Positions 3,932-23,389 of a stretch of DNA of 64,000 bases are shown here, in pieces. The notes below the pieces were generated by a model. The model was not told where the DNA came from and searched no databases. It worked only from the letters and a program-made list of their open reading frames with translations. The DNA comes from Deltaproteobacteria bacterium (lineage in GTDB: Bacteria; Myxococcota_A; Polyangia; Haliangiales; Haliangiaceae). Every line of letters begins with the position of its first letter. The stretch's first letter is position 1. The position numbers were made by a program, and so were the translations under genes. Location: the NCBI GenBank assembly GCA_021413675.1, contig JAIOQA010000154.1, positions 1-64,000 on the forward strand, given 5' to 3'.

Positions 3932-3933
3932 CG

Positions 3934-8858: not shown

Positions 8859-9763
8859 GGGCGCCTCCCCGCGTAGACGGTCGCCTCGGGGGCGCTCGCC
8901 AGCGTGAAGGTCCGGATGTCGGTCAGGCCCGCGTCGGTCATCCACGTGCGGATCGTCGCGGCGTCGTAGAGGTCGCCTTCGGCGGTGAAGATCGCCGCGC
9001 CCAGCGCGAAGAGGCAGGCGCGGAGCGCCTCGGCACCGCCGCGCGTCGGCTCCTTGATCCAGAGCTCGCCACCGGCCCGGAGCGTGTGCGCGACTCGCGC
9101 GACGAGCGTCGCGCCGGTGCGCGGACCATGCTCGTGCAACACGTTGTTGAGCAGCGCCACGTCCGCGAACGGCGCCGGCGCATACGCGACGAGATCGGCA
9201 GACACGGTCTCGAGCCGCGCGGCGTGGCGCGCGAGTCGCTGGCGCGCCATCGCGACCCGATCGGTGCGATCGACCAGCACGGCGCGGATCTCGGACGTCT
9301 CGGCGAGGAGGACCGCGAGGACGTCGCCCCACCCACCGCCGGCGTCGAGGCATGTGCCGGTGGTCGGCAAGGTCGTCGCGAGGCGCGCGCCGAGCTCACG
9401 CGCCGGCGCGCCCGTCGCGTCGCTCAGCAGGCCAGCGACCGAGAGCGCGGCGCTCTCGACCCGCAGCGACAGGCCATCTTGGTTCGGGTCGAACGGACGG
9501 TCTCGCTGGATGATCTGCGCGAGCAGCGCCGCGCCCGGCGCGCCGCGATCACCCGTGGGCCACCGATCGGCGGCGCGGACGCGCGCGTCCGCGTCCGCGA
9601 GCAACAGCCCTTCGAGCAGCAACCCATCGACCAGGCGCTGCAACCGTCGCGGCCCCCAGCTCTGGGCGCGGGCGACCGCGTCGACGTGCTGTGGCGCGGC
9701 GAAGTGCGCGGACAGCGCGAGTGCCTCGCCAGCGCCGCGGATGGCCGCACGCAACCGGTTCAT
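8855..9763 (-). CDS. Class I SAM-dependent methyltransferase, COMT-like
   Basis: A 302-residue methyltransferase. An N-terminal helical, winged-helix-like dimerisation part (about 1-140) precedes the Rossmann domain, with motif I LDAGGGWGDVLAVLL, an acidic VLVDRTDRV at the end of strand 2, and the post-motif NNVLHEHGPR that carries the His typical of plant-type O-methyltransferases. It probably methylates a small-molecule hydroxyl (inference). ATGA overlaps with both neighbours place it between a membrane protein gene and the FAD oxidase gene in one operon. Confidence 0.78.
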   Translation of the reverse strand: MNRLRAAIRGAGEALALSAHFAAPQHVDAVARAQSWGPRRLQRLVDGLLLEGLLLADADARVRAADRWPTGDRGAPGAALLAQIIQRDRPFDPNQDGLSLRVESAALSVAGLLSDATGAPARELGARLATTLPTTGTCLDAGGGWGDVLAVLLAETSEIRAVLVDRTDRVAMARQRLARHAARLETVSADLVAYAPAPFADVALLNNVLHEHGPRTGATLVARVAHTLRAGGELWIKEPTRGGAEALRACLFALGAAIFTAEGDLYDAATIRTWMTDAGLTDIRTFTLASAPEATVYAGRRP

Positions 9764-10527
9764 CGCGCCAGACCGAGAAACACCCGCAAGGTCGTGGCGG
9801 TCTCGTCGATCGCGCACTGCTGGCCCTTGCTCCGCCACTGCCGCACGACCGTGACGCGGCGCCCACCGGACAGGACCAGCGCCATGCCGACCGAGTAGAA
9901 GCTACCCGCCTGCGGGTCGACGCCGGTGATCTCGGACAGCGGCCACGCCTGGTCTGCCGAACGCAAGAGGCCGCGCGATCGCCAGCGAAGCTGGCCATCG
10001 TCGCGCGATGCGGTGATCGTGCCGCGCGTCCGCCACGCGAGGCAGAGCACGCCGAAGAAGCCGCACATGAAGGCGCTCGCCCAGTAGCCCATGTCGAAGT
10101 GGCGGATCGGTGCGGTGACCGCGAGGGAGGCGCCGTCGTGCGCCGCCGTGAACGCCGCGATCACCCGCGCGTTCTGCGCCACCTGCGCGCCGAGCTCGGG
10201 ATCGTGAAACGACTTGCCCAGCTCGCGCGTACCGGTCGTGAGATCGAGGGCGAGCACGGTGGCGCCGCTCGACGTCGTCGCGACATGCGCGCCCTGGAGC
10301 TGGTCGAGCGCGAACTCCTCGCGCGAGCTCGAGATCCGCGAGGCGCTCTCGATCGCACACCGCTTGCTCGTGCGGTCACAGGTCAGCGTCGCCTGGCTGG
10401 GGAGCGCGACCGCCACCCCGACCAGCCCCAGCGCGAGGAGGGGGAAGAAGACCGCGAACAACGTGAACAACCCGCCTGACCCGAAGCGCACCGTGAGCGT
10501 GCGATCGCCTTGCGTGGTCCTCAGCAC
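9760..10527 (-). CDS. Membrane protein with two helices, unknown function
   Basis: A 255-residue protein with one helix near residues 19-42 (LFTLFAVFFPLLALGLVGVA), an external-looking domain of about 110 residues, and a second hydrophobic stretch around MGYWASAFMCGFFGVLCLAW. The following 80 residues resemble a small PH-like domain (TITASRDDGQLRWRSRG ... WPLSEITGVDPQ). No family name is offered. Translation appears to start at GTG 10527. The stop overlaps the methyltransferase ATG by 4 bases. Confidence 0.6.
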   Translation of the reverse strand: MLRTTQGDRTLTVRFGSGGLFTLFAVFFPLLALGLVGVAVALPSQATLTCDRTSKRCAIESASRISSSREEFALDQLQGAHVATTSSGATVLALDLTTGTRELGKSFHDPELGAQVAQNARVIAAFTAAHDGASLAVTAPIRHFDMGYWASAFMCGFFGVLCLAWRTRGTITASRDDGQLRWRSRGLLRSADQAWPLSEITGVDPQAGSFYSVGMALVLSGGRRVTVVRQWRSKGQQCAIDETATTLRVFLGLAR

Positions 10528-10533: not shown

Positions 10534-11415
10534 TCAGTCCTGCCAGAGGATGAACGAGCCAGCGCTCTGGTTTCGAATGGGCAGCAGTTGCACCGAGTGG
10601 ACCAGCTGCATGAAGACGCCGCGGTTGGTGACGAGGTTGGCTTCGTCGCTCTCGAGCCGCAGCATGTACAGGTTGCGGCCATCGTCGAGAGCGCAGTTGT
10701 GCACCGTGCGCGTCACGCCACCGGGGAGGTGGCCGGTCACGATGGTGATCTGGCCGCGCAGGCCCGACCGGGTCACGACCTGCACCGGCGCCTGCGGCGG
10801 CCCGGGCGTGAAGTCCTGCGAGAGGTCTTCGAGCAGCATCCGATCCTGCAGGTGATCGAGCGACACCGCGCTCGGGCGAGCATCGAAGACCATGATGAGG
10901 CCGTGGTCCTTCGGGAAGTGCGGGGCCATCCAGGCCACGCCGCGGTGGATCCGCAGCCCGGCCCACCCCTGGGGCACGTCGTAGACGTAGGGGCGTCGCC
11001 GGTTGTCGCCGAGCCCTAGCGAGTAGTGCTTGGTGAGCCGCCGCACCACGCCGCGAACGCGCTCGCCCGCGACCGGATCGACCGCCGCGCCGTCGACCGC
11101 CGCGAAGAAGTCATCGCCGAAGATGACGCCGACGGTGCGGGTGACGAGGCGGCCGCCGACCGTCACGGAGATCGGGATAAGCGCCGCATACTCGCCTTCG
11201 TTGGTCTGGATGCGCTCGACCGGGCCTGCCTTGAAGTCCCGAGCGGACGCCGGCATCGTGCCGCGGAGTTGCGCGATCAGGGTGGCAATCGAGATCAGCG
11301 GTGTGTTCCGGGTCCGGACCCGGATCGTGCCGTTGTCTGGACCCTCGGGCGATGCGAGCAGGACGCCATCCGCCAGGATCGTACGCCGCCACCCGCTCAG
11401 CGACATGTCGCTCAT
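10534..11415 (-). CDS. Conserved hypothetical protein, possible double DcrB/DUF1795-like
   Basis: A 293-residue soluble protein without signal peptide. Two halves look related: each has a strand-rich layout with an internal YDVPQGWAGLRI- or GWRRTILADGVLLA-like beginning and a VGGRLVTRTVGVIF- or RTVHNCALDDGRNLYMLRLE-like middle. This recalls DcrB/DUF1795 folds, a family that includes chaperones of type VI effectors; the similarity is weak and by eye. It starts 36 bases from a divergent gene of similar flavour at 11452, suggesting the two work together. Confidence 0.55.
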   Translation of the reverse strand: MSDMSLSGWRRTILADGVLLASPEGPDNGTIRVRTRNTPLISIATLIAQLRGTMPASARDFKAGPVERIQTNEGEYAALIPISVTVGGRLVTRTVGVIFGDDFFAAVDGAAVDPVAGERVRGVVRRLTKHYSLGLGDNRRRPYVYDVPQGWAGLRIHRGVAWMAPHFPKDHGLIMVFDARPSAVSLDHLQDRMLLEDLSQDFTPGPPQAPVQVVTRSGLRGQITIVTGHLPGGVTRTVHNCALDDGRNLYMLRLESDEANLVTNRGVFMQLVHSVQLLPIRNQSAGSFILWQD

Positions 11416-12103: not shown

Positions 12104-12134
12104 GGCCGGACTCTAGCCCGATTCGAGGAAGCGA

Positions 12135-12824
12135 ATGCCGCTGCATGTAATCCAGCTGTTGACCAAGGAGGAGCTCGAGACCGTGCAGCGCACGATCGCG
12201 AGCGCGACGTTCGGCGACGGCGCCGTCACGAGCGGCGTCATCGCGCGACAGGCGAAACACAACCAGGAGCTCTCGCCGGAGGGTTCAGAGGGGGGGGCGC
12301 TGATCAACCAGATCTTGACCCGCGCCTTCTCGCGACACGCGATCTACCGCGCGTGGGCCCTGCCCCGCGAGAACACCGCCTTCATCGTGAATCGCTACGA
12401 AGAGGGCATGTACTACGACGACCACGTCGACAATGGCGTCCACGACTTCGGTGGCGGACGCTGGGTCCGCAGCGACCTCGCGATCACCGTGTTCCTGTCG
12501 GATCCGTCGACGTACGACGGCGGGGAGCTCGTGATCGACTCGGATCGCGAGTCCAACATGGTCAAGCTCCGCGTCGGCGAGGCGGTCGTCTATCCGGCGA
12601 CCTCGATCCACCGCGTCGAGCGGGTGCGCCGGGGCGTGCGGATCGCGGCGGTGTGCTGGGTCGAGAGCTTGATCCGCGACGGCGCCCAGCGCGCGTTGCT
12701 CTTCGACCTCGCGACGGTGATCGAGACCACGCTGCGCGAGGAGCCGACCCCCCAGCGCCAGAAGACGCTGACCAGCCTGTCGAAGGTGCGCCACAACCTC
12801 CTGCGCATGTGGGTCGATCGGTAG
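12135..12824 (+). CDS. PKHD-type Fe(II)/2-oxoglutarate dioxygenase (PiuC/YbiX-like)
   Basis: A 229-residue hydroxylase. The iron triad is visible: H97 and D99 in YYDDHVDN and H159 in ATSIHRVE, with R169 as the 2-oxoglutarate ligand. The N-terminus (MPLHVIQLLTKEELETVQR) and C-terminal helices (LTSLSKVRHNLLRMWVDR) match the PiuC/YbiX family in order and length. That family is often near iron-uptake genes, but here the neighbours are TfuA and YcaO, so a tailoring role on a peptide or on bound iron chelator is possible. It is the first of three different 2OG-oxygenase types within 8 kb. Confidence 0.88.
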   Translation: MPLHVIQLLTKEELETVQRTIASATFGDGAVTSGVIARQAKHNQELSPEGSEGGALINQILTRAFSRHAIYRAWALPRENTAFIVNRYEEGMYYDDHVDNGVHDFGGGRWVRSDLAITVFLSDPSTYDGGELVIDSDRESNMVKLRVGEAVVYPATSIHRVERVRRGVRIAAVCWVESLIRDGAQRALLFDLATVIETTLREEPTPQRQKTLTSLSKVRHNLLRMWVDR

Positions 12825-12857
12825 CTCGCGGCTGCCGCCCGACGCGCGGCCCCGCGA

Positions 12858-13532
12858 TCAGCCCGCGGTGGCCCAGGGGCGCGCCGCGACGAAGTCGATC
12901 AGGTCGAGGGCTTTCCAGCGATACGCGTCGAAGCTCGCCAGCCACGCGTTGACCCACGCCGGGCTGCTCGGGCACGACGCCACGACCGCATCACGGACGC
13001 GGGCGAGCGTCCGCTCGCCGTACCAGCACGCCGTGAGCTGCCCGAGGATGGCCACGTGCTCGTCGGAAGAGAGGCGGGCATCCGCGACGGCCGCGGCGAG
13101 CGCCGCGCGCACGTGCACGAGCGGCTCGCTGAGCTCGCGATACGGAGGCTCCGGCGCGTGCAGGAGCGCGACCTCGTCGTCCCGGAAGTCGTCGTCCTGG
13201 CAGTAGCGCTCGAAGACCCGCCCGAAGCCGCGCATCCCCAGGGGGTGCATCTCGCGCGCGCGGATCGCGCCCATCGACGACAGGCCCCAGATCTGCCAGC
13301 CCGATCGGATCGCATCGCGCAGCTCCGCGTGCCCCACCGCGAGGGACTCGTGGAACAGTCCGTCGACGAGGATCGCGCACCCGGCGGGGTGGCGCGCCGC
13401 CATCGCCGCGATGGTTCCACGCTCGGCGGGTGGCTCGAGGATGTAGGGCTCGAGATCGAGTGGCGCGATGGCGCGCGCGCGCGACAGCGTCGGGCCCGCG
13501 AACAGGAACGGTCGGACGTGGAGGCTGGGCAT
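12858..13532 (-). CDS. tfuA: TfuA-like protein, YcaO partner
   Basis: A 224-residue TfuA homologue. The start RPFLFAGPTLSR, the PPAERGTIAAMAA segment, ILVDGLFHESLAVGHAEL, then SSMGAIRAREMHPLGMRGFG and DDEVALLH are the family's conserved blocks. TfuA works with YcaO enzymes to thioamidate peptide backbones, delivering sulfur, as in methanogen McrA and thioviridamide-type RiPPs; it also occurs in the trifolitoxin cluster. Divergent from the YcaO gene starting 110 bases away. The ATG at 13532 is used since it directly precedes the conserved first strand. Confidence 0.9.
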   Translation of the reverse strand: MPSLHVRPFLFAGPTLSRARAIAPLDLEPYILEPPAERGTIAAMAARHPAGCAILVDGLFHESLAVGHAELRDAIRSGWQIWGLSSMGAIRAREMHPLGMRGFGRVFERYCQDDDFRDDEVALLHAPEPPYRELSEPLVHVRAALAAAVADARLSSDEHVAILGQLTACWYGERTLARVRDAVVASCPSSPAWVNAWLASFDAYRWKALDLIDFVAARPWATAG

Positions 13533-13642
13533 GGCGAGCGGCTCTACTCGCCATGGTAACCGTGCCAGCGCGCGAAGGGCAGGGACGCGACGTGCGCGCC
13601 CGCTCCTTGCCAAGCGCGGCGGGGCTGGGGAACATCACCGAG

Positions 13643-14869
13643 ATGGCGATCCGCACCAGCTCCAGCGTTCGTGACGTCGCGCTCGAGGTGACGTGGGCGC
13701 GGGCTCGCGCGCTCGCGCCGACGCTCGGGATCACGCGGATCACCGAGACGACGTGGCTCGATCGCGCCGGTGTCCCGGTGGCGGTCGCGATCCGCCCAGA
13801 CGCCGCGCCCGGCAGTCTGTGTGTCACGGCCGGCAAGGGCATGACCGTGATGGAGGCGATGGTCGGCGCCACGATGGAAGCGATCGAATACGCCTGGGCC
13901 GAGCACAACCGGGCGTCGTTGCGAGTGCATCGCCAGCCGGCATCGGCGGTGCTCGATGGCGCGACGCGACCGCACGCGCTGCTCGACCTGTGTCCGATCT
14001 GGGGCCAACCGATCGCGTTCGAGGCCGTGCTCGATTGTGTCGAGATGCACGACATCGTCACGGAAACGCCGATGCTGGTCCCCGCAGAGCTGGTGTTTCA
14101 CCCGTTCAAGCAGAATTCGGGACTCAGCTACTTCGGCACCAGCACCAACGGCTTGTGTTCGGGGAACACGGTGGAAGAAGCCACCGTGCACGGTCTGTGC
14201 GAGGTGGTCGAACGCGACGTCCTGTCGTTTCACCGCGTGCGTGGGCGCTCGCTGCTGGTCGACCCTGCCACGCTGCCGCCAGCGCTCGCCGCCCTCGCCG
14301 CGCGGCTCGCCGACACCGGCTTCGACCTGACGCTGCGCGCGCTGCCGAACCCGTTCCAGTTGCCATGCTACCTGGCGTTCTCGTCGGATCGCGAGCAACG
14401 CAGGATGACGCTCCCGGGGTCCGGCTGCCATCCCTCGCGCGAGATCGCCGCCACGCGCGCGATCTGCGAGACGCTCCAGGCGCGGCTCAGCTTGATCCAC
14501 GGCGGCCGTGACGACCTCGCGGGCTGGGCGCATCACGACGGGAAATCCCGCGATCAGGTCGAACGCGAGTATCACGAATTCCTGGCGGGGTTCGGGGCCG
14601 CGCCCGGTGCGGTCGCGTTCGACCAGACGTTCGTCGACGGGGCGGCGCTCGACACGGTCGGGGCGCTCCGGGCCGACATCCTGTCGCGGCTCACGGGCCA
14701 AGGGTTCGGGCGCGTGTTGCGCACGGTCTACACGCCGCGTGACTATCCGGTCCAGGTCGTGCGCGTCCTGGTGCCCGGGCTCGAGTTCTACAGTCGCGAG
14801 ACTCGTCGCCGGGGGCCGCGGCTCGCGGCCTTCATTCGATCGATGCCCCCGCCCCCGCAGCGGGGATGA
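13643..14869 (+). CDS. ycaO: YcaO-domain peptide backbone-activating enzyme
   Basis: A 408-residue YcaO protein, which uses ATP to phosphorylate a backbone amide oxygen so that a thiol or sulfide can attack. Family blocks in order: LGITRITETTWLDRAGVPV, SLCVTAGKGMTVMEAMVG, TMEAIEYAWAEHN, GTSTNGLCSGNTVEEATVHG with CEVVERD, and PGSGCHPSREIAATRAICET. The C-terminus ends SMPPPPQRG, proline-rich as in many cyclodehydratases but not a clean PxPxP. With TfuA next door, thioamidation is the first guess, azoline formation the second. The ATG at 13643 leaves 110 bases for divergent promoters; ATG 13553 is an alternative adding 30 residues. Confidence 0.92.
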   Translation: MAIRTSSSVRDVALEVTWARARALAPTLGITRITETTWLDRAGVPVAVAIRPDAAPGSLCVTAGKGMTVMEAMVGATMEAIEYAWAEHNRASLRVHRQPASAVLDGATRPHALLDLCPIWGQPIAFEAVLDCVEMHDIVTETPMLVPAELVFHPFKQNSGLSYFGTSTNGLCSGNTVEEATVHGLCEVVERDVLSFHRVRGRSLLVDPATLPPALAALAARLADTGFDLTLRALPNPFQLPCYLAFSSDREQRRMTLPGSGCHPSREIAATRAICETLQARLSLIHGGRDDLAGWAHHDGKSRDQVEREYHEFLAGFGAAPGAVAFDQTFVDGAALDTVGALRADILSRLTGQGFGRVLRTVYTPRDYPVQVVRVLVPGLEFYSRETRRRGPRLAAFIRSMPPPPQRG

Positions 14870-14882
14870 GCGCGGGGGCTCG

Positions 14883-14994
14883 GCTCAGAGCCTGTGAAGC
14901 TTTCGCTTCCAGGCTCTCTCTCGATCGATCGGCCCCGTCGAGGACGACGGTCCCGATCTCATCCGGACCCTGAGCCGGCGACTTCGTCGCCTCA
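14883..14994. repeat. Structured intergenic repeat, copy A
   Basis: This roughly 110-base element recurs at 42470-42580 and 43580-43693. Shared landmarks: a hairpin around AGCTTTCGCT flanked by AGCCTG/CAGGCT (14889-14915), a central GATCGATCGGCC (14922-14933), a CCCGATCTCATCCGGA-like block, and a terminal hairpin TGAGCCGGCGAC-TTC-GTCGCCTCA. The last four bases CTCA supply the stop codon of the minus-strand methyltransferase gene. It lies between two convergent genes and could terminate both. Likely a REP-like mobile palindrome (inference). Confidence 0.8.
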
Positions 14995-16053
14995 CGTGCG
15001 GGTCGCGACCACGAGCCACGAGCTGACGCGATTGGTGACCATGCTCGCGTTGGGCCACACCTCGTGGTCGAGCCACGCCTCGCGGCGGATCTGGAATCCG
15101 TTCTCCGCCAGGTGGTGCCGGCTCTCCTCGACGGTCCACATCTCGGCCGGCTCGTAGCGGGCGTAGCCGAGCGGCCCGAAGTGCATCAGTGTCCCGCCGC
15201 GCGGCAACAGCGCGTGCGCGACGCGGAGCAGCTGGGGAAATCCGACGATGTCCGTGAAGAACGACGAGAGCAGCAGGTCCGCGTGCTGTCGGAGGATCGG
15301 CGGACGCAACGCGTCGGCGACGCACGTGATCACGTTGGGCGCGGCGGGGCGGTGCAGCGTGATCTCCGGGCAGAGGTCCGCGATCGCGCGGGCGTTGGAC
15401 TCGAGGGGATCACACGCGACGAGATCGCTCGACGCGAGCAGCGCGTTGGTCGCGCCGAACGCGACCTCGAGATCGATCGCGACCACCTCCGCGCAGCGCT
15501 CGCGAAGCTCCCACCCGATCCGCCCGGCACCCGCGCCGAGGCACACGGCGCGCGTCTTTGGACCGAGGTCGCCACACCCGTCGCGGATGATCGTGGCGAC
15601 CTGCGCCAGCATCTGCTCGCTGCGCGCCCGCCATCCCCAGTCCGTGACCAGGTGACGAACGATCGCGTTGAGGTTGAGGCCACCCGCGTGGCGGGGCCCG
15701 CCGTCGAGGTCGCCGGCAGGGTCCGCCGGCCCCGGGCCCAGCGCCTCGCTGATCAGCGCCAGCCAGGCTTCCAGCAGCACCAGATTGCGCTGCAATCCGG
15801 TGCTGATCCGCGACAACGCCTCCGGGTCGCGTGCGCGCTGCGTACGCAGCTCGTCGAATCCGACCAGCGCACTCCGCATCATCGACGCGTGACGACCGTA
15901 ACGCGCGCGAGACGCACGAAGATGTACCTGCGGGTCGACGACCAGCACCGGCACGACCCCAGCCAGGACCGGGAACTGCGCGCCGCATGCGCAGCGTATG
16001 GACCGCCCACTCGTTGCAGCGAGAATGTCACCGCAACGGGGGCAGGCGAGCAT
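14992..16053 (-). CDS. Zinc-ribbon methyltransferase, N2227-like
   Basis: A 353-residue protein. The N-terminus is a zinc ribbon (CPRCG ... CACG, residues 4-23). A helical part (MMRSALVGFDELRTQRARDP, then LQRNLVLLEAWLALISEAL) is followed by a Rossmann methyltransferase with motif I VCLGAGAGRIGWEL, acidic VVAIDLEV, and a late HFGPLGYARYEPAEMWTVEE block. The layout recalls N2227/carnosine N-methyltransferase-like enzymes. Next to YcaO it may N- or C-methylate the peptide product (inference). Its stop codon lies inside a dispersed repeat. Confidence 0.75.
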   Translation of the reverse strand: MLACPRCGDILAATSGRSIRCACGAQFPVLAGVVPVLVVDPQVHLRASRARYGRHASMMRSALVGFDELRTQRARDPEALSRISTGLQRNLVLLEAWLALISEALGPGPADPAGDLDGGPRHAGGLNLNAIVRHLVTDWGWRARSEQMLAQVATIIRDGCGDLGPKTRAVCLGAGAGRIGWELRERCAEVVAIDLEVAFGATNALLASSDLVACDPLESNARAIADLCPEITLHRPAAPNVITCVADALRPPILRQHADLLLSSFFTDIVGFPQLLRVAHALLPRGGTLMHFGPLGYARYEPAEMWTVEESRHHLAENGFQIRREAWLDHEVWPNASMVTNRVSSWLVVATRT

Positions 16054-16062
16054 CCGCCGGGA

Positions 16063-16554
16063 CTACCAGCTCGTGACGGTGTCCCACGCGGACGACGCAG
16101 CGCCGCCGATGGCCGCGCCGGCGTCAGCGACACCGTGCTCGATACCACCGACCACGGAACCAGCCGAGAAGCTGTAGTCGTCGCCGAGGACCGCACCCGA
16201 CAGGGCGCCGAGTCCGTTGAGGGCCAGTTCGCCTGCGCCGAGGTAGAGCGCGGCGGGCGGGCAGAACGAGGCGGCGGCACCAGCGCCACCGAGCGTCGCT
16301 TCACCCATCTCGGTGTAGAACTCGTTGTTGGCGTACGAACCCTGGGCCTGGTCCGTGTGCTGCATCATCTCGTAGCCGTGGTAGGCCGCCTGCCCGCCAC
16401 CGATCGCGGCTCCGAGGAACGGCAGCGCCTTGCCTACGGTCGCGCCAACGCCGCTGTGCATCAGCGGCTCTGCGAAGTGCTCCGCAACGTGCGCTGCCGG
16501 CAAGATGTACTTCTCGAGGAAGCCTCCGGCGCCTCCACCTTCATGTTCAGCCAT
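16063..16554 (-). CDS. Gly/Ala-rich glycine-zipper protein, candidate pathway substrate
   Basis: A 163-residue protein starting MAEHEGGGAGGFLEKY, with a good GGGAGA ribosome binding site. It is dominated by Gly and Ala with two hydrophobic glycine-zipper stretches (VGKALPFLGAAIGGGQAAYH; LGGAGAAASFCPPAALYLGA) and ends AAIGGAASSAWDTVTSW. One Cys. No signal peptide. I do not recognise a family. It lies 9 bases after the zinc-ribbon methyltransferase gene on the opposite reading order (upstream in the operon) within the YcaO region, so it could be a large precursor or a pore-forming bacteriocin-like substrate. A type VI or toxin-like secreted protein is the main alternative. Confidence 0.6.
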   Translation of the reverse strand: MAEHEGGGAGGFLEKYILPAAHVAEHFAEPLMHSGVGATVGKALPFLGAAIGGGQAAYHGYEMMQHTDQAQGSYANNEFYTEMGEATLGGAGAAASFCPPAALYLGAGELALNGLGALSGAVLGDDYSFSAGSVVGGIEHGVADAGAAIGGAASSAWDTVTSW

Positions 16555-16608
16555 GGGTCGTCTCCCGCTCTGTGGGTGAAAAGAGAAACTGCTGCACGTA
16601 CTACGGGG

Positions 16609-16617
16609 CCCCCCCCC
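16609..16617. repeat. C9 homopolymer tract in divergent promoter region
   Basis: A run of nine C between two divergent start codons (16554 and 16697), preceded by ACGGGG and followed by GT so that ACGGGG/CCCCGT can pair around it. Runs this long are rare elsewhere in the window. In other bacteria such tracts in promoters vary in length and switch expression; whether this one varies cannot be seen from a single sequence. Confidence 0.7.
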
Positions 16618-16696
16618 GTGACCTTCCCGTACGATATTGGAATTGCCGCAGGGGATCCAGTGGTGCGGGAACGTGTTGTAGTTCAGGCGGTTGCCC

Positions 16697-17494
16697 ATGG
16701 AAGATGACGACCCACTCCCGCGCCTCGCGGCGCTCATCCACGAGATCGCGGCTGATCTGGGCGCGTTGCCGCCTGGCCTGCGCGATCCCGTGCGCAAGGA
16801 TCTCCGGCAGTTCCTCCAGCGCGCGGCGGCGATGGCCGGCGCGGTGCGTGCTCTGCACGGGAGCCAGGTCGCGGGGCAGCTCGAGCGGCTCACGCAGGAT
16901 CTCACGCAGGATCTGCGGATCGCGATCACCGGCACGGCGCCGCCCCCGTGGATCACGGTCGGCTTCCCCCCTGCCACGGTCGTCGCCAACCTCGGGCGCG
17001 GCCTGCCGTTCCAGAACGGCGCGGCGCGCTACGTCTACTTCGCGCTCGCGCTCGAGCACTTCTTCTATCCGGGGCAGGCGCAGTTCCTGGTCCGCGAGAT
17101 CCGCCGCGTGCTCGCGGACGACGGCGCGGTGCGAATCGTGGTGCCGGACATCGGCGCGTATGCCCGGGCGTATGCCCGCGACGACCGCACGTTCTTCGAA
17201 GGCCATCGCCGTTACTGGGACTGGGCAGAGAAGGTGCGTACTCCGATGGAGTTTCTGCAGGTGATGTCCGGCGCCGGCGGCGGTCGCGGGCACAGCGACT
17301 TCTTCGGCCACAAGAACGGCTACGACTTCGAGACGCTGGAGATGCTGCTCCACGACAACGGCTTCCGCACGGTCGAGCGGGTCGCGTATCGCGAGGGCGC
17401 GATCGCCGAGCTCATCCTGGACGAGTACAGCCACGACGCCGGCTTCGCGTGCGGGGACGAGTCGTACAGCCTGTTTGTGGAGGCGCGTCCGTGA
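16697..17494 (+). CDS. Methyltransferase-like protein with an altered SAM loop
   Basis: A 265-residue protein. The first 75 residues are a helical extension. The remainder follows the predicted SAM-methyltransferase family whose core reads GLPF...YxxxxLEHF...REIRRVLxDDGAVRIVVPDI; here ARYVYFALALEHFFYPGQA and REIRRVLADDGAVRIVVPD are clear. The position of the usual glycine-rich SAM loop reads AITGTAPPPWITVG, without LNLGCG. It may therefore bind another ligand or be a non-catalytic partner. AGGCGG at 16685-16690 supports the ATG at 16697. It precedes the PhyH gene closely, in one plus-strand operon. Confidence 0.72.
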   Translation: MEDDDPLPRLAALIHEIAADLGALPPGLRDPVRKDLRQFLQRAAAMAGAVRALHGSQVAGQLERLTQDLTQDLRIAITGTAPPPWITVGFPPATVVANLGRGLPFQNGAARYVYFALALEHFFYPGQAQFLVREIRRVLADDGAVRIVVPDIGAYARAYARDDRTFFEGHRRYWDWAEKVRTPMEFLQVMSGAGGGRGHSDFFGHKNGYDFETLEMLLHDNGFRTVERVAYREGAIAELILDEYSHDAGFACGDESYSLFVEARP

Positions 17495-17555
17495 GTCGGT
17501 GTATCGTCGGGCAGTGCACGCCGACGAGATCGTGGCCCGCGCGAGAGATCGAAGC

Positions 17556-18377
17556 ATGTGGCGCCGGATGTCGCCGTGGATGACGGTCGAGGGTGATGCG
17601 GAGGCGCTGGAGCCGTTTCCGCTCCCGGGCTCGCTCCGCCATCGCATGGTGCACGATGGCTACGCGCAGCTCGCCGATGTCGTGCCGGCGGCCTTCACCG
17701 CGAACCTCGCGTCGACCGTCGTCAACCTTCGCCAGCGCGGCATCCCGCCGATCTTCGTGTTCGTCTACGACCAGTTCTGGCAGCTCGCGCGTCGGTTCGA
17801 GCGACTGCTCGACGACATCGTCGGCGCCGGCCACGTCATGTTGCCCAACGTGTGGACGTGGTACGTCGACCCCGCGGCGAGCGAGTCCGGCTGGGCGCCG
17901 CATCGCGATCGGAAACCGGACACGCTGCTGCCCGACGGCATGCCCAAGGCCGTGTCCGTGTGGGTGCCCCTGACCGACGCTGACCCGACCAACGGCTGCA
18001 TGTACGTGGTCCCGGCGTACCTGGATGCCGATTATCAACAGCGCGAGTTCACCAAGCTGCGCTGCGCGCTCCACGACGCGCGCGCGCTGCCCGCCACCGC
18101 TGGATCGTTCCTGTGCTGGACGCAAGCGCTGGCCCACTGGGGCGGTCGGTCGAGCGACCTCGCGCGGCATCCGCGGATCAGCATCGGGCTGGAGTTCCAG
18201 CGCGGCGACAGCGAGCCCTACGACTTCCCGCGCGTGCGGCGCGTGCCGCCGTCATTCGAGGAGCGGCTCGCGCTGATCGCCAAGATGATCTACCTGTACT
18301 GGACCCGCGCGAACATGCCGCGACCGTACATGGAGGTCGCGATCCGGCTCGGCCAGCAGCTGGCCCGGTTCGCGTGA
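17556..18377 (+). CDS. Phytanoyl-CoA dioxygenase (PhyH)-like Fe(II)/2OG oxygenase
   Basis: A 273-residue oxygenase. The facial triad is HRD in SGWAPHRDRKP plus the distal His in ALAHWGGRSS; HPRISIGLEF offers the Arg for 2-oxoglutarate. KAVSVWVPLTDADPTNGCMY is the usual PhyH core. PhyH enzymes hydroxylate or chlorinate many small molecules and peptide side chains. ATG 17556 (after GAGAGATCGAAGC) is preferred; in-frame GTGs at 17514 and 17499 would extend it. The stop overlaps the GTG of the next gene (GTGA), so the two are translationally coupled. Confidence 0.82.
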   Translation: MWRRMSPWMTVEGDAEALEPFPLPGSLRHRMVHDGYAQLADVVPAAFTANLASTVVNLRQRGIPPIFVFVYDQFWQLARRFERLLDDIVGAGHVMLPNVWTWYVDPAASESGWAPHRDRKPDTLLPDGMPKAVSVWVPLTDADPTNGCMYVVPAYLDADYQQREFTKLRCALHDARALPATAGSFLCWTQALAHWGGRSSDLARHPRISIGLEFQRGDSEPYDFPRVRRVPPSFEERLALIAKMIYLYWTRANMPRPYMEVAIRLGQQLARFA

Positions 18378-19435
18378 GCTCGCCGCTCCCGCCGCTGTAC
18401 GCCGCGTGGATCGACGCGCTGCTCGGCGGGACCCTGCCGAGCGAGGTGCGCGCGACCTGCGACGCGTGCGCGATGGCGCCGCGCGCGGACGATCCGCCCG
18501 GCGAGCGCCGCTTCGATCCGGGCCTCAAGTGCTGCACCTTCTATCCCGACCTGCCGAACTTCTCCGTCGGTGCGATCCTCGCCGATCCGAGCGCCAGCGG
18601 GCGCCGGGAGATCGATCGTCGCTTCGGGCTCGGCGCCGGCATCACGCCCCTCGGGATGACGCGCCCGACGGTGTATCAGCTGGTGTTCGCGCAGGGCGGC
18701 AACGCGTTCGGGCGGAGCAACGCGCTGCGGTGCGGCTTCCTCGATGCCGGCGGGCGCTGCGGGATCTGGGCGCATCGCGAGTCGACCTGCGTGAGCTACT
18801 ACTGCAAGTTCGAGCGCGGCGCGATCGGGCGCAACCTGTGGCGTGCGCTCCAGGACCTGCTGGGCTCGATCGAACGCCAGCTCGCGCAATGGTGCGTGCT
18901 CGAGCTGGACCCCGGCGGCGCCGCGATCGCGTCGCTGTTTCGCGCGCCGAGCGCACCGGCGTTCGGGCATCGCGCGCTCGACGGCGTCGGTGATCCCGCC
19001 GAGCTGCGCCTCGTCTGGGGCACGTGGGCGGGACGCGAGCGCGAGTTCTTCGCGCGCGCGCACGCGCTCGTGCGCGGGCTGACCTGGGCGCGCGTCCTCG
19101 AGGTGTGTGGGCCGGAGGTCGCGGGCCGCGCGAAGGTCCTCGTCGCCGCGTACCAGCGCCATGGCGACCCGACGGTGCCGGACTCCCTCCGACTCGGCCC
19201 GCATCAGGTCACGCCGCTCGACGCCCACCGCGTCTGGCTGCGCGGCTACAGCACGATCGATCCCGTCGAGGTCGCCCCGGCGGAGGCCGCCGCGTTGACC
19301 GCGTTCGACGGTCGACCGACCGAGGTCGTCGTCGCGGAGCTGGCGGCGCGCGGCGTCCCGATCTCGTCGACGCAGATCACGCGGCTGGCGGAGTTCGAGG
19401 TGCTGATCCCGGCGTCCACGCTCGTCCGCAGGTAG
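18374..19435 (+). CDS. Cysteine-rich protein of unknown function, possible wHTH tail
   Basis: A 353-residue protein with clustered cysteines: CDACAM (about 31-36), KCCTFY, RCGFLDAGGRCGIW and STCVSYYCKF. The spacing suggests a metal or Fe-S centre, somewhat like YkgJ-type cysteine-cluster proteins, though not a clean match. The final 80 residues (ALTAFDGRPTEVVVAELAAR ... LAEFEVLIPA) look like a small winged-helix of the kind found in PqqD/RRE peptide-recognition domains; this is by eye only. Start is GTG overlapping the PhyH stop. Context suggests a role in handling the peptide or delivering metal or sulfur. Confidence 0.65.
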   Translation: MSSPLPPLYAAWIDALLGGTLPSEVRATCDACAMAPRADDPPGERRFDPGLKCCTFYPDLPNFSVGAILADPSASGRREIDRRFGLGAGITPLGMTRPTVYQLVFAQGGNAFGRSNALRCGFLDAGGRCGIWAHRESTCVSYYCKFERGAIGRNLWRALQDLLGSIERQLAQWCVLELDPGGAAIASLFRAPSAPAFGHRALDGVGDPAELRLVWGTWAGREREFFARAHALVRGLTWARVLEVCGPEVAGRAKVLVAAYQRHGDPTVPDSLRLGPHQVTPLDAHRVWLRGYSTIDPVEVAPAEAAALTAFDGRPTEVVVAELAARGVPISSTQITRLAEFEVLIPASTLVRR

Positions 19436-19440
19436 CGGCG

Positions 19441-20043
19441 CTACCCCCGCACGCGCGTCAGGAAGTACACCTGGATCAGGCGGCCGGTCGCCAGGTCATG
19501 GCCGAACTCGTCGTGTGGCGAGTGGAACATGGACGCCGAGAACAGGATCAGGCGGTTGGGGACGAGCGGGACCTGCATCTGCAGCTCCCACTTGTCCTTG
19601 TCGTTGCTGTCGGGCGCGAATTGCTCGCGGAGCAGGCGCGCCCGCTCGACGGGATCCGCGGGCGCGGCGAGCAGCCCGGTCGGCCGGTGCTTCCAGAAGC
19701 ACGTGCCAATGCGACCGTCGCACTGCGCCTGGGTGTTCAGGTAGATGACCGCGGAGAGCTGGGTCGCGTCGATGTGCACGTTGCGAGGGCGTTCGTCACC
19801 CGCCACCGTGCTCCGGAAGTGCCCGGACCCGATGTCGGGTGTGAAGGCCACCGGGCTCCCGGCGATCACGGTCAGCTTCTCGAGGGCCTCGCGCGTGCCG
19901 AACGACCGGCGCGAGTTGCGGCCGGGGTACTTGCCGCTCTGGGGCGTCTTGACGCCATCTTCGTACTCGGCGGCAAGCGCGGTGGCGCGGATCGCCTCGA
20001 AGTCGTCGTAGAAGTCGTCGACCACGGTGAGGGCCATCCGCAT
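19441..20043 (-). CDS. DUF6445-like Fe(II)/2OG oxygenase
   Basis: A 200-residue protein resembling the DUF6445 branch of 2OG oxygenases. It has the HxD pair in NVHIDATQLSAVIYLN, a GTCFWKHRPTG block, and SASMFHSPHDEFGH with the distal His, then GRLIQVYFLTRV carrying the co-substrate Arg. The first strand is TVVDDFYDDFEAIRATAL. ATG 20043 follows AGGATGCGGTC; ATG 20037 is possible. It is convergent with the cysteine-rich gene, 5 bases apart, and lies in the same minus-strand unit as the GT-B-like and radical SAM genes. Confidence 0.78.
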   Translation of the reverse strand: MRMALTVVDDFYDDFEAIRATALAAEYEDGVKTPQSGKYPGRNSRRSFGTREALEKLTVIAGSPVAFTPDIGSGHFRSTVAGDERPRNVHIDATQLSAVIYLNTQAQCDGRIGTCFWKHRPTGLLAAPADPVERARLLREQFAPDSNDKDKWELQMQVPLVPNRLILFSASMFHSPHDEFGHDLATGRLIQVYFLTRVRG

Positions 20044-20057
20044 GACCGCATCCTAGC

Positions 20058-21266
20058 TCAGCTGCGCACGCGATCGAACGCGTCGGCGGGCGAGGGGAGC
20101 GCCCGGACCTGGCGTGCGTACGCCTGCTGGTGCTGGCGTTGCGCGTCGGCGACGGCGGGCTCGAACAGCAGCTGGGCGCACGTCTGGCGGAGGCCGGGCA
20201 GGTCGAGCACCTCGGCGGACGCGAACGTCGCGCAGTACGGATTGCCGGCGAAGACCGGGCCCAGGAAGTCGTGGAGCCCGAGCGGCCACACGCGAAAGCG
20301 CTGGTGCGACGGCTTCAGCGCGAGCCATCGCCGCACCTCCGGCGAGGGCGGGCTGGGCAGCGCGGCGGCGATCTCGTCCGGCGTGCCGGCGAACGAGTTG
20401 GTCGCGATCACCACCGGTAGCTGGTTTGCGATCGCTGCGCCGACGGTCGTCGCCGACAGGTTGAGGCTGAGGAGCAGATCACCGGCCGCCAGGAACTCGG
20501 CGAAGCGAGGGGCCGGCACCGGCGCTTGCCAGTGGTAGCGATCGCCGAGCGCGGTGGCGCCGAACGCCTCGGGCCCGACGTGCAGCACCCGCACGCGCGG
20601 GCCCAGCGTCGCGAGGTGGTCGAACAGCACGCGCGGCAGCATCGCGGCCGCCTCGGCGCTCACGGCATCGGGCTGCGCGCGCGGGCGCTGCCAGGTCGCC
20701 GTGGTCGTGATCAGCAGGCGATCCTCATCGGCCAGCCCGAGCCGCGCGCGCGCCTTGGTGCGATCGACGCGCGCGCCCGCGGGCAGCGCGTCGTAGCCGC
20801 CCGCCACGTCTGGCGCGACGAACGGCACCGGCACCAGGCGCCGCTCGACCGCGAGCGCCTCGCGCGGCAGGTCCCAGCGCGCGCCGAGCGCATCCCACAC
20901 CAGATCGGTCGCGGGCAGGTTCCAGACATCGAGCGCGAGCACCGGGACCGGCATGGCGCGCAGGAACGTCGCGGCCCGGCCGTGCAACGAGAGCGACAGA
21001 AAGACGCTCGCGAGATCGACGAGCACGAGGTCGTCGCAACGCTCGGCGGCCAGGAGGTCGAGGACCGCGAGATCGACGCGCGTCGCGATCGCATCGGTCA
21101 AGCCCACGCGGAACGGCGCGTCCTTGAGCACGACCGAGAGGCTCGACGGCGCGAGGAAGAGGATGCGATCGCCGCGCGCGTGGAGCGCCTCCGCGAGCCG
21201 CAACCCGAGCACGGCTTCACCGAACGCGCCGTTGCCCATCGCGAGGAACAGGTGAGTCCGCGGCAC
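20058..21266 (-). CDS. GT-B-like (glycosyltransferase-like) protein
   Basis: A 402-residue protein with the two-Rossmann GT-B layout: LFLAMGNGAFGEAVLGLRLA at the start, a middle VRVLHVGPEAFG, and FLAAGDLLLSLNLSATTVGA with GAAIANQLPVVIATNSFAG near the C-terminus, where nucleotide-sugar enzymes carry their donor site. It may be the DUF6365 family, but I am unsure. Function inferred: sugar transfer or a related group transfer in the same pathway. The GTG start overlaps the last base of the radical SAM stop codon, so it is translated immediately after it. Confidence 0.65.
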   Translation of the reverse strand: MPRTHLFLAMGNGAFGEAVLGLRLAEALHARGDRILFLAPSSLSVVLKDAPFRVGLTDAIATRVDLAVLDLLAAERCDDLVLVDLASVFLSLSLHGRAATFLRAMPVPVLALDVWNLPATDLVWDALGARWDLPREALAVERRLVPVPFVAPDVAGGYDALPAGARVDRTKARARLGLADEDRLLITTTATWQRPRAQPDAVSAEAAAMLPRVLFDHLATLGPRVRVLHVGPEAFGATALGDRYHWQAPVPAPRFAEFLAAGDLLLSLNLSATTVGAAIANQLPVVIATNSFAGTPDEIAAALPSPPSPEVRRWLALKPSHQRFRVWPLGLHDFLGPVFAGNPYCATFASAEVLDLPGLRQTCAQLLFEPAVADAQRQHQQAYARQVRALPSPADAFDRVRS

Positions 21267-23389
21267 TACACCAGCACCATGCCATGAGGACGAAACGGTT
21301 CGAACCAGGTGGGGTCGTCGAAATCGGCCGTCCGAGGCCCGACCGCGGAGCGCCAGGCCTGCGCGCGGCACCATGACAGCTGATCGGCGATCGTGCGCGG
21401 CACCTGGAAGCGGAGTTGCTCGCCTCGGTCGCTGGCGACGGTCAGCCAGCCGTTGGCCCAGAACGGCCGGCCACCCAGCCAGCACAGCCGCGTCTGCTCG
21501 CCGGCTGGTTCCGCGGCGGCGAGCACGTCGGTGACGAAGTCCGGCGCGACCGTGGGCGCCGGCAACCGGGCGCTGGTGAACCAGTCACGCACGTCGCGCT
21601 CGAGGTCCTTGCCGCGCGCGTACTGGCGCAACGCCGCGGTCAGCGCCGCGAGGATCCACTCGTGGTCCGGTGGTACCGCGACCCGTTGATAGTCGAGGTT
21701 GTAGCGCGCGAATCCCTGGAACCGGCGCTCCGCGACCCGGATGCCGAAGCGATCCGGGGTCCGCCCGACCGGCGCATGGGCGGTCGCCGAGAAGTGGTGG
21801 AAATACCCCGACTGCAGGATTCGCGCGCGCGTCATCTGCCGCAACAGCTCGAGGCTGTTGATGGTGTCCTGGGGCGTCTCGCCGGGAAAGCCGTAGATGA
21901 GATACGCGTGCGTCCGCACGCCCGCGCGGGTCATGCCGTGCAGCACGCGGATCACCTGCTCGACGGTGATCCCCTTCGCGATGAGCGCCAGCAGCCGATC
22001 GCTGGCGACCTCGATCCCTCCCGTGACCGCCACCAGGCCCGCGGCCGCGAGCAGGCGACTGCGATCGGGCGTGAACCCAGGATCGAACCGGACGTTGCCG
22101 TAGAACTGATACCCGCGCTGGCGGCGGCGCAGCTCGAGGGCGAGGTTGGTCAGGAGCGGCGGTGGGATCGCCTCGTCGGTGAAATGAAACGAAGCCAGCC
22201 CGGTCTGGGCCGCCATCGCGTCCATCTGATCGGCGATCGCCGCGGCAGGCAGTGGATCGAAGTCCTGGATGTACGGCAGGTGAATGTCGCAGAACGTGCA
22301 CTTCTTCCAGTAGCAGCCGTGCGCCGCCGTGAGCTTGAGCCACGGGCCTTCGTCGGCCGTCCGGAACACCGGGTTGAGCGTGCTGATCGGCTGGATGTAC
22401 TGGCGCAAGTCGATGCCGCCGTAGTCCGGCGCCGGCAACTCGCGAAACCGCGGCGCGCGCGCGTCCGCGCCGGCGTGCCAGATCACCGTGGTGGCCTCGC
22501 GCGCGAAGGTGCGCACGAGCGGCGCCGTGGGGTCGGTGGTCAGGCGGGCGCAGATCTGCTGCAGCGGGACTTCGCCATCGTCGAGCACGACATAGTCGAC
22601 GTGATCGAACACGCGCGCCTCGGTCAGCGAGCGCAGCTCGGTCGACGGGTATCCTCCGCCGAGCGCCCGCGCCGCGCGGGGGCGGTGCCGCGCGGCCCAC
22701 GCACCGAGGCGAAAGGCTCCGAGCACGTTGCCCGGGAACGGACACGTGAAGCCCACGAGGTCGACGTCCCTCGGGATGAGCACCTCGGCGGCCTCCTCCA
22801 GCATCGCCTCGACCACGTTGGGTGGTCGCGCGATCTCGGCAGCGAGCGGATCGAAGCTCGATGCCGACGACGCCAGGCGGTCGCCGTACGTCGTCATCCC
22901 GAAGAGCGGCGCTACCGTGTGCTGGATGAGGTATCCGAGATCCTGGATCATCCGCGATGCCAGGTACCGCGCGCGGTCGCCATGGCCGTACGTCCCGAAG
23001 AGCTCGTCGTAGGTCTCGGGATCGTGCCGCCGGTAGCCGGGGCCTCGCGGCAAGCGGTCCACGAGCCTGAGCGCGAGCGACGCGTCGCGACCCTGCAGCA
23101 GCCGGATCGCGTCGTCGATCGTGTCCGCGTACCGATCGCGGTCGACGTAGAGCGGCGCGAGCTCGCTCGTCAGCTGCTGGCGATCGATCGCGTCGAACAC
23201 GCGCTCGATGCCGGCCCGGCTGAAGACCCGCAGGAACAGCTCGATGCTGAGATCGATCGGCGTCACCTCGTGGCCGAGCTGACGCAGCCAACCGCTGAGT
23301 CGCGGCAACGCGGCGTAGGCCGTGTTGAGGTTCGACATCGGCGGCACGATGACGGCGATCTTCAGCACGCTGCGAACGCCGGCGCTCAT
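21266..23389 (-). CDS. B12-binding radical SAM protein
   Basis: A 707-residue enzyme. The N-terminal 200-340 residues include a cobalamin-binding-type Rossmann region (VDLVGFTCPFPGNVLGAFRL ... ALGGGYPSTE, DYVVLDDGE). The radical SAM core follows with cysteines C359, C364 and C367 in GCYWKKCTFCDIH, that is C-x4-C-x2-C, not the usual C-x3-C-x2-C. TGGIEVASDRLLALIAKGI and YLIYGFPGETPQDT are standard later motifs. A C-terminal 150-residue domain is present. Such enzymes methylate unreactive carbons in natural products, or build RiPP crosslinks. ATG 23389 is preferred to GTG 23398. It leads an operon with the GT-B-like and DUF6445-like genes. Confidence 0.88.
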   Translation of the reverse strand: MSAGVRSVLKIAVIVPPMSNLNTAYAALPRLSGWLRQLGHEVTPIDLSIELFLRVFSRAGIERVFDAIDRQQLTSELAPLYVDRDRYADTIDDAIRLLQGRDASLALRLVDRLPRGPGYRRHDPETYDELFGTYGHGDRARYLASRMIQDLGYLIQHTVAPLFGMTTYGDRLASSASSFDPLAAEIARPPNVVEAMLEEAAEVLIPRDVDLVGFTCPFPGNVLGAFRLGAWAARHRPRAARALGGGYPSTELRSLTEARVFDHVDYVVLDDGEVPLQQICARLTTDPTAPLVRTFAREATTVIWHAGADARAPRFRELPAPDYGGIDLRQYIQPISTLNPVFRTADEGPWLKLTAAHGCYWKKCTFCDIHLPYIQDFDPLPAAAIADQMDAMAAQTGLASFHFTDEAIPPPLLTNLALELRRRQRGYQFYGNVRFDPGFTPDRSRLLAAAGLVAVTGGIEVASDRLLALIAKGITVEQVIRVLHGMTRAGVRTHAYLIYGFPGETPQDTINSLELLRQMTRARILQSGYFHHFSATAHAPVGRTPDRFGIRVAERRFQGFARYNLDYQRVAVPPDHEWILAALTAALRQYARGKDLERDVRDWFTSARLPAPTVAPDFVTDVLAAAEPAGEQTRLCWLGGRPFWANGWLTVASDRGEQLRFQVPRTIADQLSWCRAQAWRSAVGPRTADFDDPTWFEPFRPHGMVLV

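What the first reader, a model, noticed from the sequence alone, without database searches (positions are those of the whole stretch)
12135..23389. Candidate YcaO-TfuA peptide-modification cluster without a classical precursor
A TfuA/YcaO pair, known to thioamidate peptide backbones, sits with three distinct Fe(II)/2OG oxygenase families, a B12-binding radical SAM enzyme, two methyltransferase-like proteins, a GT-B-like protein and a cysteine-rich protein. Many bonds of one product could be altered. No transporter, leader peptidase or short precursor peptide is visible, which departs from thioviridamide, trifolitoxin and thiopeptide clusters. The genes lie on both strands in about three transcription units. 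A single shared product is inference from clustering.
Basis: partly seen in the sequence, partly recalled or inferred. Interest (0 to 1): 0.88.

Follow-up and report, generated by a model that had tools for sequence, protein, structure and literature searches.

The report
Chaperoned protein with peptide-tailoring enzymes
A bacterium, probably a myxobacterium, carries a gene cluster in which enzymes of the kind that decorate small peptide antibiotics sit with a glycine-rich protein and a pair of chaperone-like proteins, which suggests that a whole chaperoned protein, rather than a short peptide, may be the thing that is chemically decorated.

Summary
The TfuA/YcaO pair, three Fe/2OG oxygenase families and the B12 radical-SAM enzyme are real. 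No short precursor was found in the window, although the closest plasmid relatives of this YcaO keep a 50-54 aa ORF just upstream. The cluster is wider than reported (7458-23389). Two other contigs of the same genome share its core: a 293-aa protein (g11) and GT-B-like DUF6365 on both, radical SAM (55%) and FAD oxidase (46%) on one, a Gly-rich g17 homologue on the other. g11 folds as two Mog1/DcrB-type domains, the fold of Eag effector chaperones and of some immunity proteins. It has 13 matches in this genome and 12 in a relative, mostly with a small partner (g12 here), often near Gly-rich or toxin-like genes. One such locus in the relative carries a bona fide RiPP radical-SAM methylase (TIGR03975, 550 bits). 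I propose that g17 (163 aa), guarded by g11/g12, is the modified substrate. TfuA-YcaO and most oxygenases are unique to this locus, and close relatives keep tfuA-ycaO beside unrelated genes, so their membership is less certain. No T6SS sheath was found; a contractile-injection-type sheath was. Delivery by it is only a hypothesis. No product was shown.

The parts
7458..8858 (-). g8, FAD-binding oxidoreductase (466 aa)
   Evidence: PF01565 3.1e-24; homologues at g11-family loci own C135, G387:C30, G076:C74
8855..9763 (-). g9, SAM methyltransferase (302 aa)
   Evidence: Methyltransf_2 1.9e-10; 4-bp overlaps with its neighbours; membership by position only
9760..10527 (-). g10, hydrophobic protein of unknown family (255 aa)
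   Evidence: no Pfam; overlaps g9; position only
10534..11415 (-). g11, two-domain Mog1/DcrB-fold protein (293 aa), proposed cargo chaperone
   Evidence: model pLDDT 90.4; fold search; 13 matches in own genome
11605..11931 (+). g12, small partner of g11 (108 aa as called)
   Evidence: partner HMM built without it, 9.5e-22; BLAST 2.4e-8 to a partner at L100
12135..12824 (+). g13, PKHD-type Fe(II)/2OG oxygenase (229 aa)
   Evidence: PF13640, PF18331; NCBIfam NF003974 over cut-off; membership uncertain
12858..13532 (-). g14, TfuA (224 aa)
   Evidence: PF07812 1.4e-34
13592..14869 (+). g15, YcaO (425 aa as called; ATG at 13643 possible)
   Evidence: PF02624 5.3e-63; nearest solved structure MJ1094, 6pe3, 1.3e-25
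14992..15882 (-). g16, possible methyltransferase (296 aa)
   Evidence: weak hits below cut-off
16063..16554 (-). g17, Gly/Ala-rich protein (163 aa with the upstream start), proposed substrate
   Evidence: homologue at own C102 near DUF6365 and a g11-family gene; start
16697..17494 (+). g18, possible methyltransferase (265 aa)
   Evidence: weak hit below cut-off
17568..18377 (+). g19, PhyH-type oxygenase (269 aa)
   Evidence: PF05721 2.4e-7, over cut-off; HRD motif
18374..19435 (+). g20, Cys-rich protein (353 aa)
   Evidence: 10 Cys; 42% homologue at G387:C30 near a g11-family gene, FAD oxidase and Gly-rich protein
19441..20037 (-). g21, DUF6445, 2OG-oxygenase-like (198 aa)
   Evidence: PF20043 7e-11; invariant HxD, H, R with L037
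20058..21269 (-). g22, DUF6365, GT-B-like (403 aa with the upstream start)
   Evidence: PF19892 1.5e-57; fold search; start
21266..23389 (-). g23, B12-type radical SAM enzyme (707 aa), proposed C-methyltransferase
   Evidence: PF04055 5.7e-14; best NCBIfam TIGR03975, 99.7 bits, below its cut-off 281.85; 55% paralogue at own C135

Best explanation
The locus makes and modifies one chaperoned protein. g17, a 163-aa Gly/Ala-rich protein, is the substrate. g11 and g12 (g11 of Mog1/DcrB fold) hold it in the cytosol as Eag proteins hold effector transmembrane domains. The core enzymes (B12 radical SAM C-methylase g23, GT-B-like g22, FAD oxidase g8, probably methyltransferase g9) act on it, and TfuA-YcaO (backbone thioamide) plus the oxygenases g13, g19 and g21 were added at this locus. 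The product then leaves the cell or is injected by an unknown route. Shown: gene content, recurrence of parts of the core on other contigs, the predicted fold of g11, the lack of a recognisable short precursor in the window. Inferred: that g17 is the substrate, each chemical step, the chaperone role, and export.
For: Core recurs: DUF6365 is over its cut-off in 1 of 377 phylum genomes, this one, with three copies; two more genomes have matches below the cut-off, whose loci L061 and L062 show none of the window's genes. All three own copies lie with a g11-family gene; two lie with a Gly-rich protein of the g17 family (the third is on an 8.9-kb contig that shows none); two with a radical SAM of one pair in the tree; two with the FAD oxidase. 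The g11 family, searched on its own, led to further loci with the same kinds of enzyme: a TIGR03975 RiPP radical SAM at 549.7 bits (cut-off 281.85) beside g11-type and partner genes in G387:C361; FAD oxidase, g20 homologue, Gly-rich protein and two ATP-grasp enzymes in G387:C30; FAD oxidase and a protein of that Gly-rich family in G076:C74. A partner gene is at 19 of 24 g11-family loci, 14 of them recognised by eye and 5 by the HMM made from those. The g11 model (pLDDT 90) matches SciW and EagT6 (Z 12.1 and 11.3) and DcrB. Own g11-family loci: 8 of 13 have a protein of at least 15% Gly within two genes; 11 of 37 near proteins against 10 of 135 elsewhere, P 0.0008. YcaO enzymes that modify whole proteins are in print: McrA (PMC5589413, start of abstract seen in a listing) and uL16 (PMC13063428, passages read).
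Against: No opened locus combines TfuA-YcaO with the core; close relatives of the pair sit among unrelated genes. A first, looser Gly-rich test over all 24 loci (within three genes) was not significant: 14 of 100 proteins against 12 of 135, P 0.29; per locus it was 11 of 24 against 19 of 101 background centres. GxxxG/A motifs in g17 do not exceed its composition (14 against a shuffled mean of 11.7; 115 of 500 shuffles reach it), and no hydrophobic segment of g17 or of its C102 homologue passed a simple Kyte-Doolittle threshold, so an Eag-like mode of binding is not supported by g17 itself. The Mog1 fold is shared by immunity proteins (TplEi, first in Foldseek, TM-score only 0.32), PsbP and Mycobacterium antigens, some with higher Z. 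Five genes lie between g11 and g17. P values are post hoc. The assembly is in 564 contigs and 92% complete.
Confidence: 0.48

Rival explanations
1. Mosaic neighbourhood: the core (g8-g12, g17, g22, g23) is one unit, while TfuA-YcaO and some oxygenases are an independent insertion that modifies another protein of the cell, as YcaO enzymes modify uL16 or McrA.
For: G357 and G254 keep a 45-50% identical TfuA-YcaO pair beside unrelated genes. The pair is divergent here, unlike 26 other distinct pairs. Neither the pair nor g13, g16, g18, g19, g21 has a match at the two paralogous loci.
Against: DUF6445 lies near the pair in G211 as well and is in one run with g22-g23 here; the pair lies between core genes, not at an edge. 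[quoted passage not shown]
Confidence: 0.27
2. Ordinary thioamidated RiPP cluster whose short precursor is encoded elsewhere in the genome or was missed.
For: The nearest plasmid relatives of this YcaO carry a 50- and a 54-aa ORF just upstream, with ThiF-type, MFS transporter and cupin genes downstream; own C424 has a 53-aa ORF with a GG motif beside its TfuA-YcaO.
Against: No peptide of 5-30 kb in six frames matches those candidates; among short ORFs in the gaps only a 78-aa hydrophobic one stood out by eye; parts of the core are tied to a Gly-rich protein and chaperone-like genes. The rest of the genome was not searched for a precursor.
Confidence: 0.13
3. g11 and g12 are immunity proteins and g17 is an unmodified toxin; the enzymes make an unrelated metabolite.
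For: Two-domain Mog1-fold immunity proteins TplEi and Tli4 give the longest Foldseek alignments of g11; g11 relatives sit by M91-type and eCIS_core proteins.
Against: g11 shows no signal peptide by eye, whereas from recall those immunity proteins are periplasmic; the g11 family accompanies very different neighbours together with a recurring small partner, which suits a chaperone; tailoring genes recur with it.
Confidence: 0.12

Closest known systems
Thioamidated RiPP clusters with YcaO-TfuA (TfuA-type families of PMC8120280, passages read; thioamitides from recall)
   Same: TfuA and YcaO adjacent, with radical SAM, methyltransferase and oxygenase tailoring genes
   Different: No short precursor found in the window, pair divergent, substrate proposed to be a 163-aa chaperoned protein
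TIGR03975 RiPP maturation radical SAM C-methyltransferases (proteusin/bottromycin-type, from recall)
   Same: B12-type radical SAM; the G387:C361 locus carries a true member beside g11-type and partner genes
   Different: g23 is below the TIGR03975 cut-off; its relatives in many phyla are of a role unknown to me
Eag (DUF1795) chaperones of T6SS effectors (PMC7773334, passages read)
   Same: Mog1/DcrB fold, gene often beside effector-like cargo
   Different: Two domains in one chain, no DUF1795 Pfam hit, no T6SS sheath found in this genome
YcaO modification of whole proteins: McrA (PMC5589413, abstract start in a listing) and uL16 (PMC13063428, passages read)
   Same: YcaO acting on a full-length protein
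   Different: Here many tailoring enzymes and chaperone-like genes lie in one locus

Membership tests
Thioamidated RiPP (YcaO-TfuA) cluster | Adjacent YcaO and TfuA genes | tested here: met
   (adjacent, but divergent)
Thioamidated RiPP (YcaO-TfuA) cluster | Short precursor peptide encoded nearby | tested here: not met
   relatives have 50-54 aa candidates
Thioamidated RiPP (YcaO-TfuA) cluster | Thioamide in the product | not testable with these tools
   needs mass spectrometry
Thioamidated RiPP (YcaO-TfuA) cluster | YcaO aligns along the thioglycine-type archaeal enzyme | tested here: met
   residues 32-409 on MJ1094, 1.3e-25; conserved blocks read by eye, ATP residues not mapped one by one; that MJ1094 is the McrA enzyme is from recall
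TIGR03975 RiPP radical SAM C-methyltransferase | g23 over the curated cut-off | tested here: not met
   99.7 against 281.85 bits (the G387:C361 enzyme: 549.7)
Eag chaperone (T6SS) | DUF1795/DcrB fold | tested here: met
   superfamily level only
Eag chaperone (T6SS) | Pfam DUF1795/DcrB sequence match | tested here: not met
   Searches (g11, E up to 0.05; homologue L101, E up to 1): no family
Eag chaperone (T6SS) | T6SS in the same genome | tested here: not met
   no PF05943 match in own genome or G387 (draft assemblies); 4 of the 7 strong g11-family genomes have it
Eag chaperone (T6SS) | prePAAR effector with transmembrane domain as cargo | not tested
   PAAR was not searched; g17 matches no Pfam family
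eCIS cargo | Contractile sheath genes in the genome | tested here: met
   PF04984 over cut-off in 7 of 7 strong g11-family genomes and 36 of 95 in all; the family also covers phage sheaths, eCIS type read by eye from gene order; shared ancestry not removed
eCIS cargo | eCIS_core (DUF4157) or other known domain in g17 | tested here: not met
   no Pfam family (eCIS_core found instead in a protein beside a g11-family gene in G076)
eCIS cargo | Gene within the eCIS locus | tested here: inconclusive
   window on C182, sheath genes on C161; contigs not joined

The most novel reading that the evidence does not exclude
RiPP-type enzymes tailor a chaperone-guarded protein that is then delivered as a payload, most likely by the contractile (eCIS-type) particle of this bacterium; the g11-family loci would be a whole class of such payload modules, some plain and some chemically modified.
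Probability: 0.2. Interest if true: 0.92.

Novelty: new variant of a known kind. Interest (0 to 1): 0.68.

Why it matters
If g17 is the substrate, RiPP chemistry (methylation, hydroxylation, glycosylation, thioamidation) would extend to a chaperoned full-size protein without leader peptide or peptide transporter, linking natural-product tailoring with effector delivery. It also gives a search handle (the g11/g12 pair) for clusters that precursor-based mining tools would miss.

Tried and rejected
T6SS as delivery route: no PF05943 match in own genome or G387. Link to eCIS: 7 of 7 strong g11-family genomes have PF04984 over cut-off against 36 of 95 overall (hypergeometric 0.00076), but five of the seven are one family and 24 of the 29 other members of the own family have a sheath match too, so it is weak; the weak eighth genome G426 (20.8 bits, a stop inside) has none. 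g20 as a marker: matches in 12 of 95 genomes; of four further loci opened (L205-L208) none has the g11 pair. g17 family: besides the two own copies only one weak match (G424, 8.9e-4) in 95 genomes. DUF6365 in plasmids: no match. Literature, open-licence PMC only: DUF6365 and DUF6445, no paper; YcaO with contractile injection, YcaO with DcrB, and a four-term query, no paper. GxxxG enrichment: not in g17; of eight proteins tested only one (L089, 16 of 500 shuffles) leaned that way. Classical precursor by comparison with relatives: nothing credible (no BLAST hit at E up to 1, best HMM E 1.4). The 80 of 80 CX4CX2C count is selected by the search motif and is not evidence. PDB sequence searches with g11 and g22 profiles gave no credible relative.

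Rows dropped: of 25 g11-family genes that clustered by BLAST, L103 (3-kb contig, fused call) was left out of the alignment and of the counts (24 used). G431, G263 and G322 (L108-L110) had matches, but my gene caller gave no g11-type protein there, so they are in no neighbourhood count. At L209 (G351, g8 relative) the gene caller also worked badly, so the lack of a g11 hit there says little. In G387 two of the 12 matches are neighbouring pieces on C50. The 15 partner proteins (14 loci) for the partner HMM were chosen by eye. In the tree one row was left out by the program, and the place of the long rows (g23, own C135, G387:C361) is flagged as unsure; only the pairing of g23 with own C135 is used. 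Gene calls are from my own codon-usage script, not a standard annotator.
Full report
What is there. I re-called genes with a codon-usage script and scanned g8-g28 with Pfam and NCBIfam. g16 and g18 are only weakly methyltransferase-like. g20 is Cys-rich without a Pfam family. The gene order has six strand runs from g12 to g23. g19-g20 overlap by 4 bp, g8-g9 and g9-g10 overlap by 4 bp each with g11 close upstream, and g23-g22-g21 are close-packed on one strand, with g22 probably starting at the end of g23.

Corrected parts. g17 was called as 132 aa; the frame is open upstream to an ATG at 16554 preceded by GGGAG, giving 163 aa, 19% Gly and 20% Ala.

Same-genome paralogues. DUF6365 exceeds its cut-off in 1 of 377 phylum genomes, this one, with three copies; two other genomes have weaker matches whose neighbourhoods share no gene with the window. 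The other two own contigs were opened. C135 (8.9 kb) has a g11-like gene (32%), a g8-like FAD oxidase (46%), a g23-like radical SAM (55%) and DUF6365 (44%). C102 has a g11-like gene (35%), DUF6365 (42%) and a Gly-rich protein related to g17 (47-50%). A third radical SAM copy, C413 (45%), is on a 4.3-kb contig without the other genes. In a tree of 78 rows it groups with Myxococcota, while g23 and the C135 copy form their own pair (SH-aLRT 99) on a long branch. The tree program flags the long rows as unsure, so I use only the pairing.

The g11 family. A search of 95 relatives with g11 and its two paralogues found 13 matches in the own genome, 12 in G387 (two of them neighbouring pieces), and one or two each in six others, one of which (G426) is weak with a stop inside. 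I opened those loci except G426. A small partner protein is at 19 of 24 loci used: 14 recognised by eye (15 proteins) and 5 by the HMM built from these, among them g12 of the window at 9.5e-22. The model of g11 (24 sequences, pLDDT 90.4) has two repeats of one fold. Foldseek gives the T6SS immunity protein TplEi first (9.9e-6, long alignment, TM-score 0.32), then PsbP-type and other proteins, EagT6 (5.3e-4), and slightly weaker DcrB and SciW. In the second look Z is 12.1 for SciW and 11.3 for EagT6 (both 116 residues, 2.9 A), but 14.7 for a Mycobacterium antigen and up to 12.8 for PsbP-type proteins. The fold therefore fits a chaperone of the Eag kind without proving it.

Neighbours of the g11 family. 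In the own genome 8 of 13 loci have a protein of at least 15% Gly within two genes: 11 of 37 near proteins against 10 of 135 elsewhere (P 0.0008). A looser test tried first, within three genes over 24 loci, gave 14 of 100 against 12 of 135 (P 0.29), or 11 of 24 loci against 19 of 101 background centres; the far set there includes g17 and other cluster members, but I report both. Other neighbours include an M91-like protein (PF14891 1.6e-15 for the one scanned, L099) with two homologues at L100 and L107, and an eCIS_core protein (PF13699 9.6e-15, L104).

Tailoring enzymes at g11-family loci found without using the enzymes. G387:C361: a radical SAM enzyme that is a true TIGR03975 RiPP C-methyltransferase (549.7 bits, cut-off 281.85) beside g11-type and partner genes. 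G387:C30: FAD oxidase, Cys-rich g20 homologue (42%), Gly-rich protein and two ATP-grasp enzymes. G076:C74: FAD oxidase, a protein of the same Gly-rich family and a metallo-beta-lactamase-fold protein. Of five strong g8 matches in the seven genomes searched, four are at g11-family loci (two of these in the own genome, from which the family was defined); the fifth, in G351, lies at a contig end and was poorly tested. This is the best independent support that RiPP-type enzymes belong with these chaperone-like pairs.

TfuA-YcaO. TfuA occurs in 24 of 377 genomes. The pair of the window is closest to those of G357, G254 and G149. In G357 and G254 it stands among unrelated genes; in G149 it is with methyltransferase-like and cupin or 2OG-like proteins (by eye). 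None of the 20 TfuA regions opened shows the core. G211 has the pair one gene from DUF6445, with a MNIO enzyme (sub-cut-off matches) and two similar 70-aa ORFs. DUF6445 is rare: 9 of 377 genomes. The nearest plasmid relatives (Pantoea 38%, Paraburkholderia 37%) have a 50- and a 54-aa ORF just before ycaO, then tfuA, a ThiF-type gene (plus ThiS in Paraburkholderia), an MFS transporter and a cupin protein. Nothing like these peptides is encoded in 5-30 kb of the window. So the lack of a classical precursor in the window holds up and contrasts with relatives; the rest of the genome was not searched for one.

Interpretation. The evidence for a common core around g11/g12 and a Gly-rich protein is good (I would say 0.75). 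That g17 is the modified substrate is the simplest reading (about 0.5): it is the only conserved gene of the core that is neither enzyme-like nor chaperone-like. That TfuA-YcaO acts on it is less sure (about 0.4). YcaO enzymes that modify whole proteins exist (uL16, PMC13063428, passages read; McrA, PMC5589413, abstract start in a listing). Export is open: no T6SS sheath found in the genome, a contractile-injection-type sheath on another contig. The association of that sheath with g11-family genomes is confounded by shared ancestry.

g22 fold. The model is poor (pLDDT 59.5, three sequences), but 134 PDB chains match at E up to 0.001 and the 50 listed are glycosyltransferases or UDP-GlcNAc 2-epimerases (GT-B fold, from recall) (TM-scores 0.3-0.4).

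Novelty. Searches of open-licence PMC for YcaO with contractile injection, YcaO with DcrB, and contractile injection with effector, post-translational modification and radical SAM gave no paper; DUF6365 and DUF6445 gave none. I rate it a new variant of a known kind, because no product is shown.

Noticed in passing
L039 (G000:C424) 2626-2787, minus: 53-aa ORF with a GG motif and Cys-containing end directly upstream of a second own TfuA-YcaO pair, with oligopeptide-type ABC transporter genes (by eye): looks like a classical thioamidated RiPP cluster.
   Followed up: partly
L038 (G000:C563) 4887-16795: Third own TfuA-YcaO pair, with a MNIO enzyme, a B12 radical SAM enzyme (best match ApyD, below cut-off) and a PhyH-like protein; a large DUF4157-like protein (by eye) follows.
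   Followed up: partly
L037 (G211:C156) 6962-16526: TfuA-YcaO with DUF6445, a MNIO enzyme, a radical SAM protein (by eye) and two similar 70-aa ORFs that look like precursors.
   Followed up: partly
L211 (Pantoea ananatis plasmid) 2721-4916: A PAAR protein, a DcrB-related protein and an Imm74 immunity gene lie about 4 kb from a YcaO-TfuA cluster.
   Followed up: no
L034 (G357:C462) 14257-14415, minus: 52-aa ORF just upstream of YcaO, a possible precursor.
   Followed up: partly
window 11867-12103, minus: 78-aa ORF with hydrophobic stretches, overlapping the end of g12; may be a small membrane protein.
   Followed up: no
window 21266-23389, minus: g23 has the cluster motif CX4CX2C (HGCYWKKCTFC) instead of the usual CX3CX2C (from recall), as do its two own paralogues.
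   Followed up: partly
L104 (G076:C155) 6381-7997, minus: eCIS_core protein directly beside a g11-family gene.
   Followed up: partly
L098 (G387:C361) 69-1787: FkbH-type HAD protein on the same short contig as g11-type, partner and TIGR03975 radical SAM genes.
   Followed up: no
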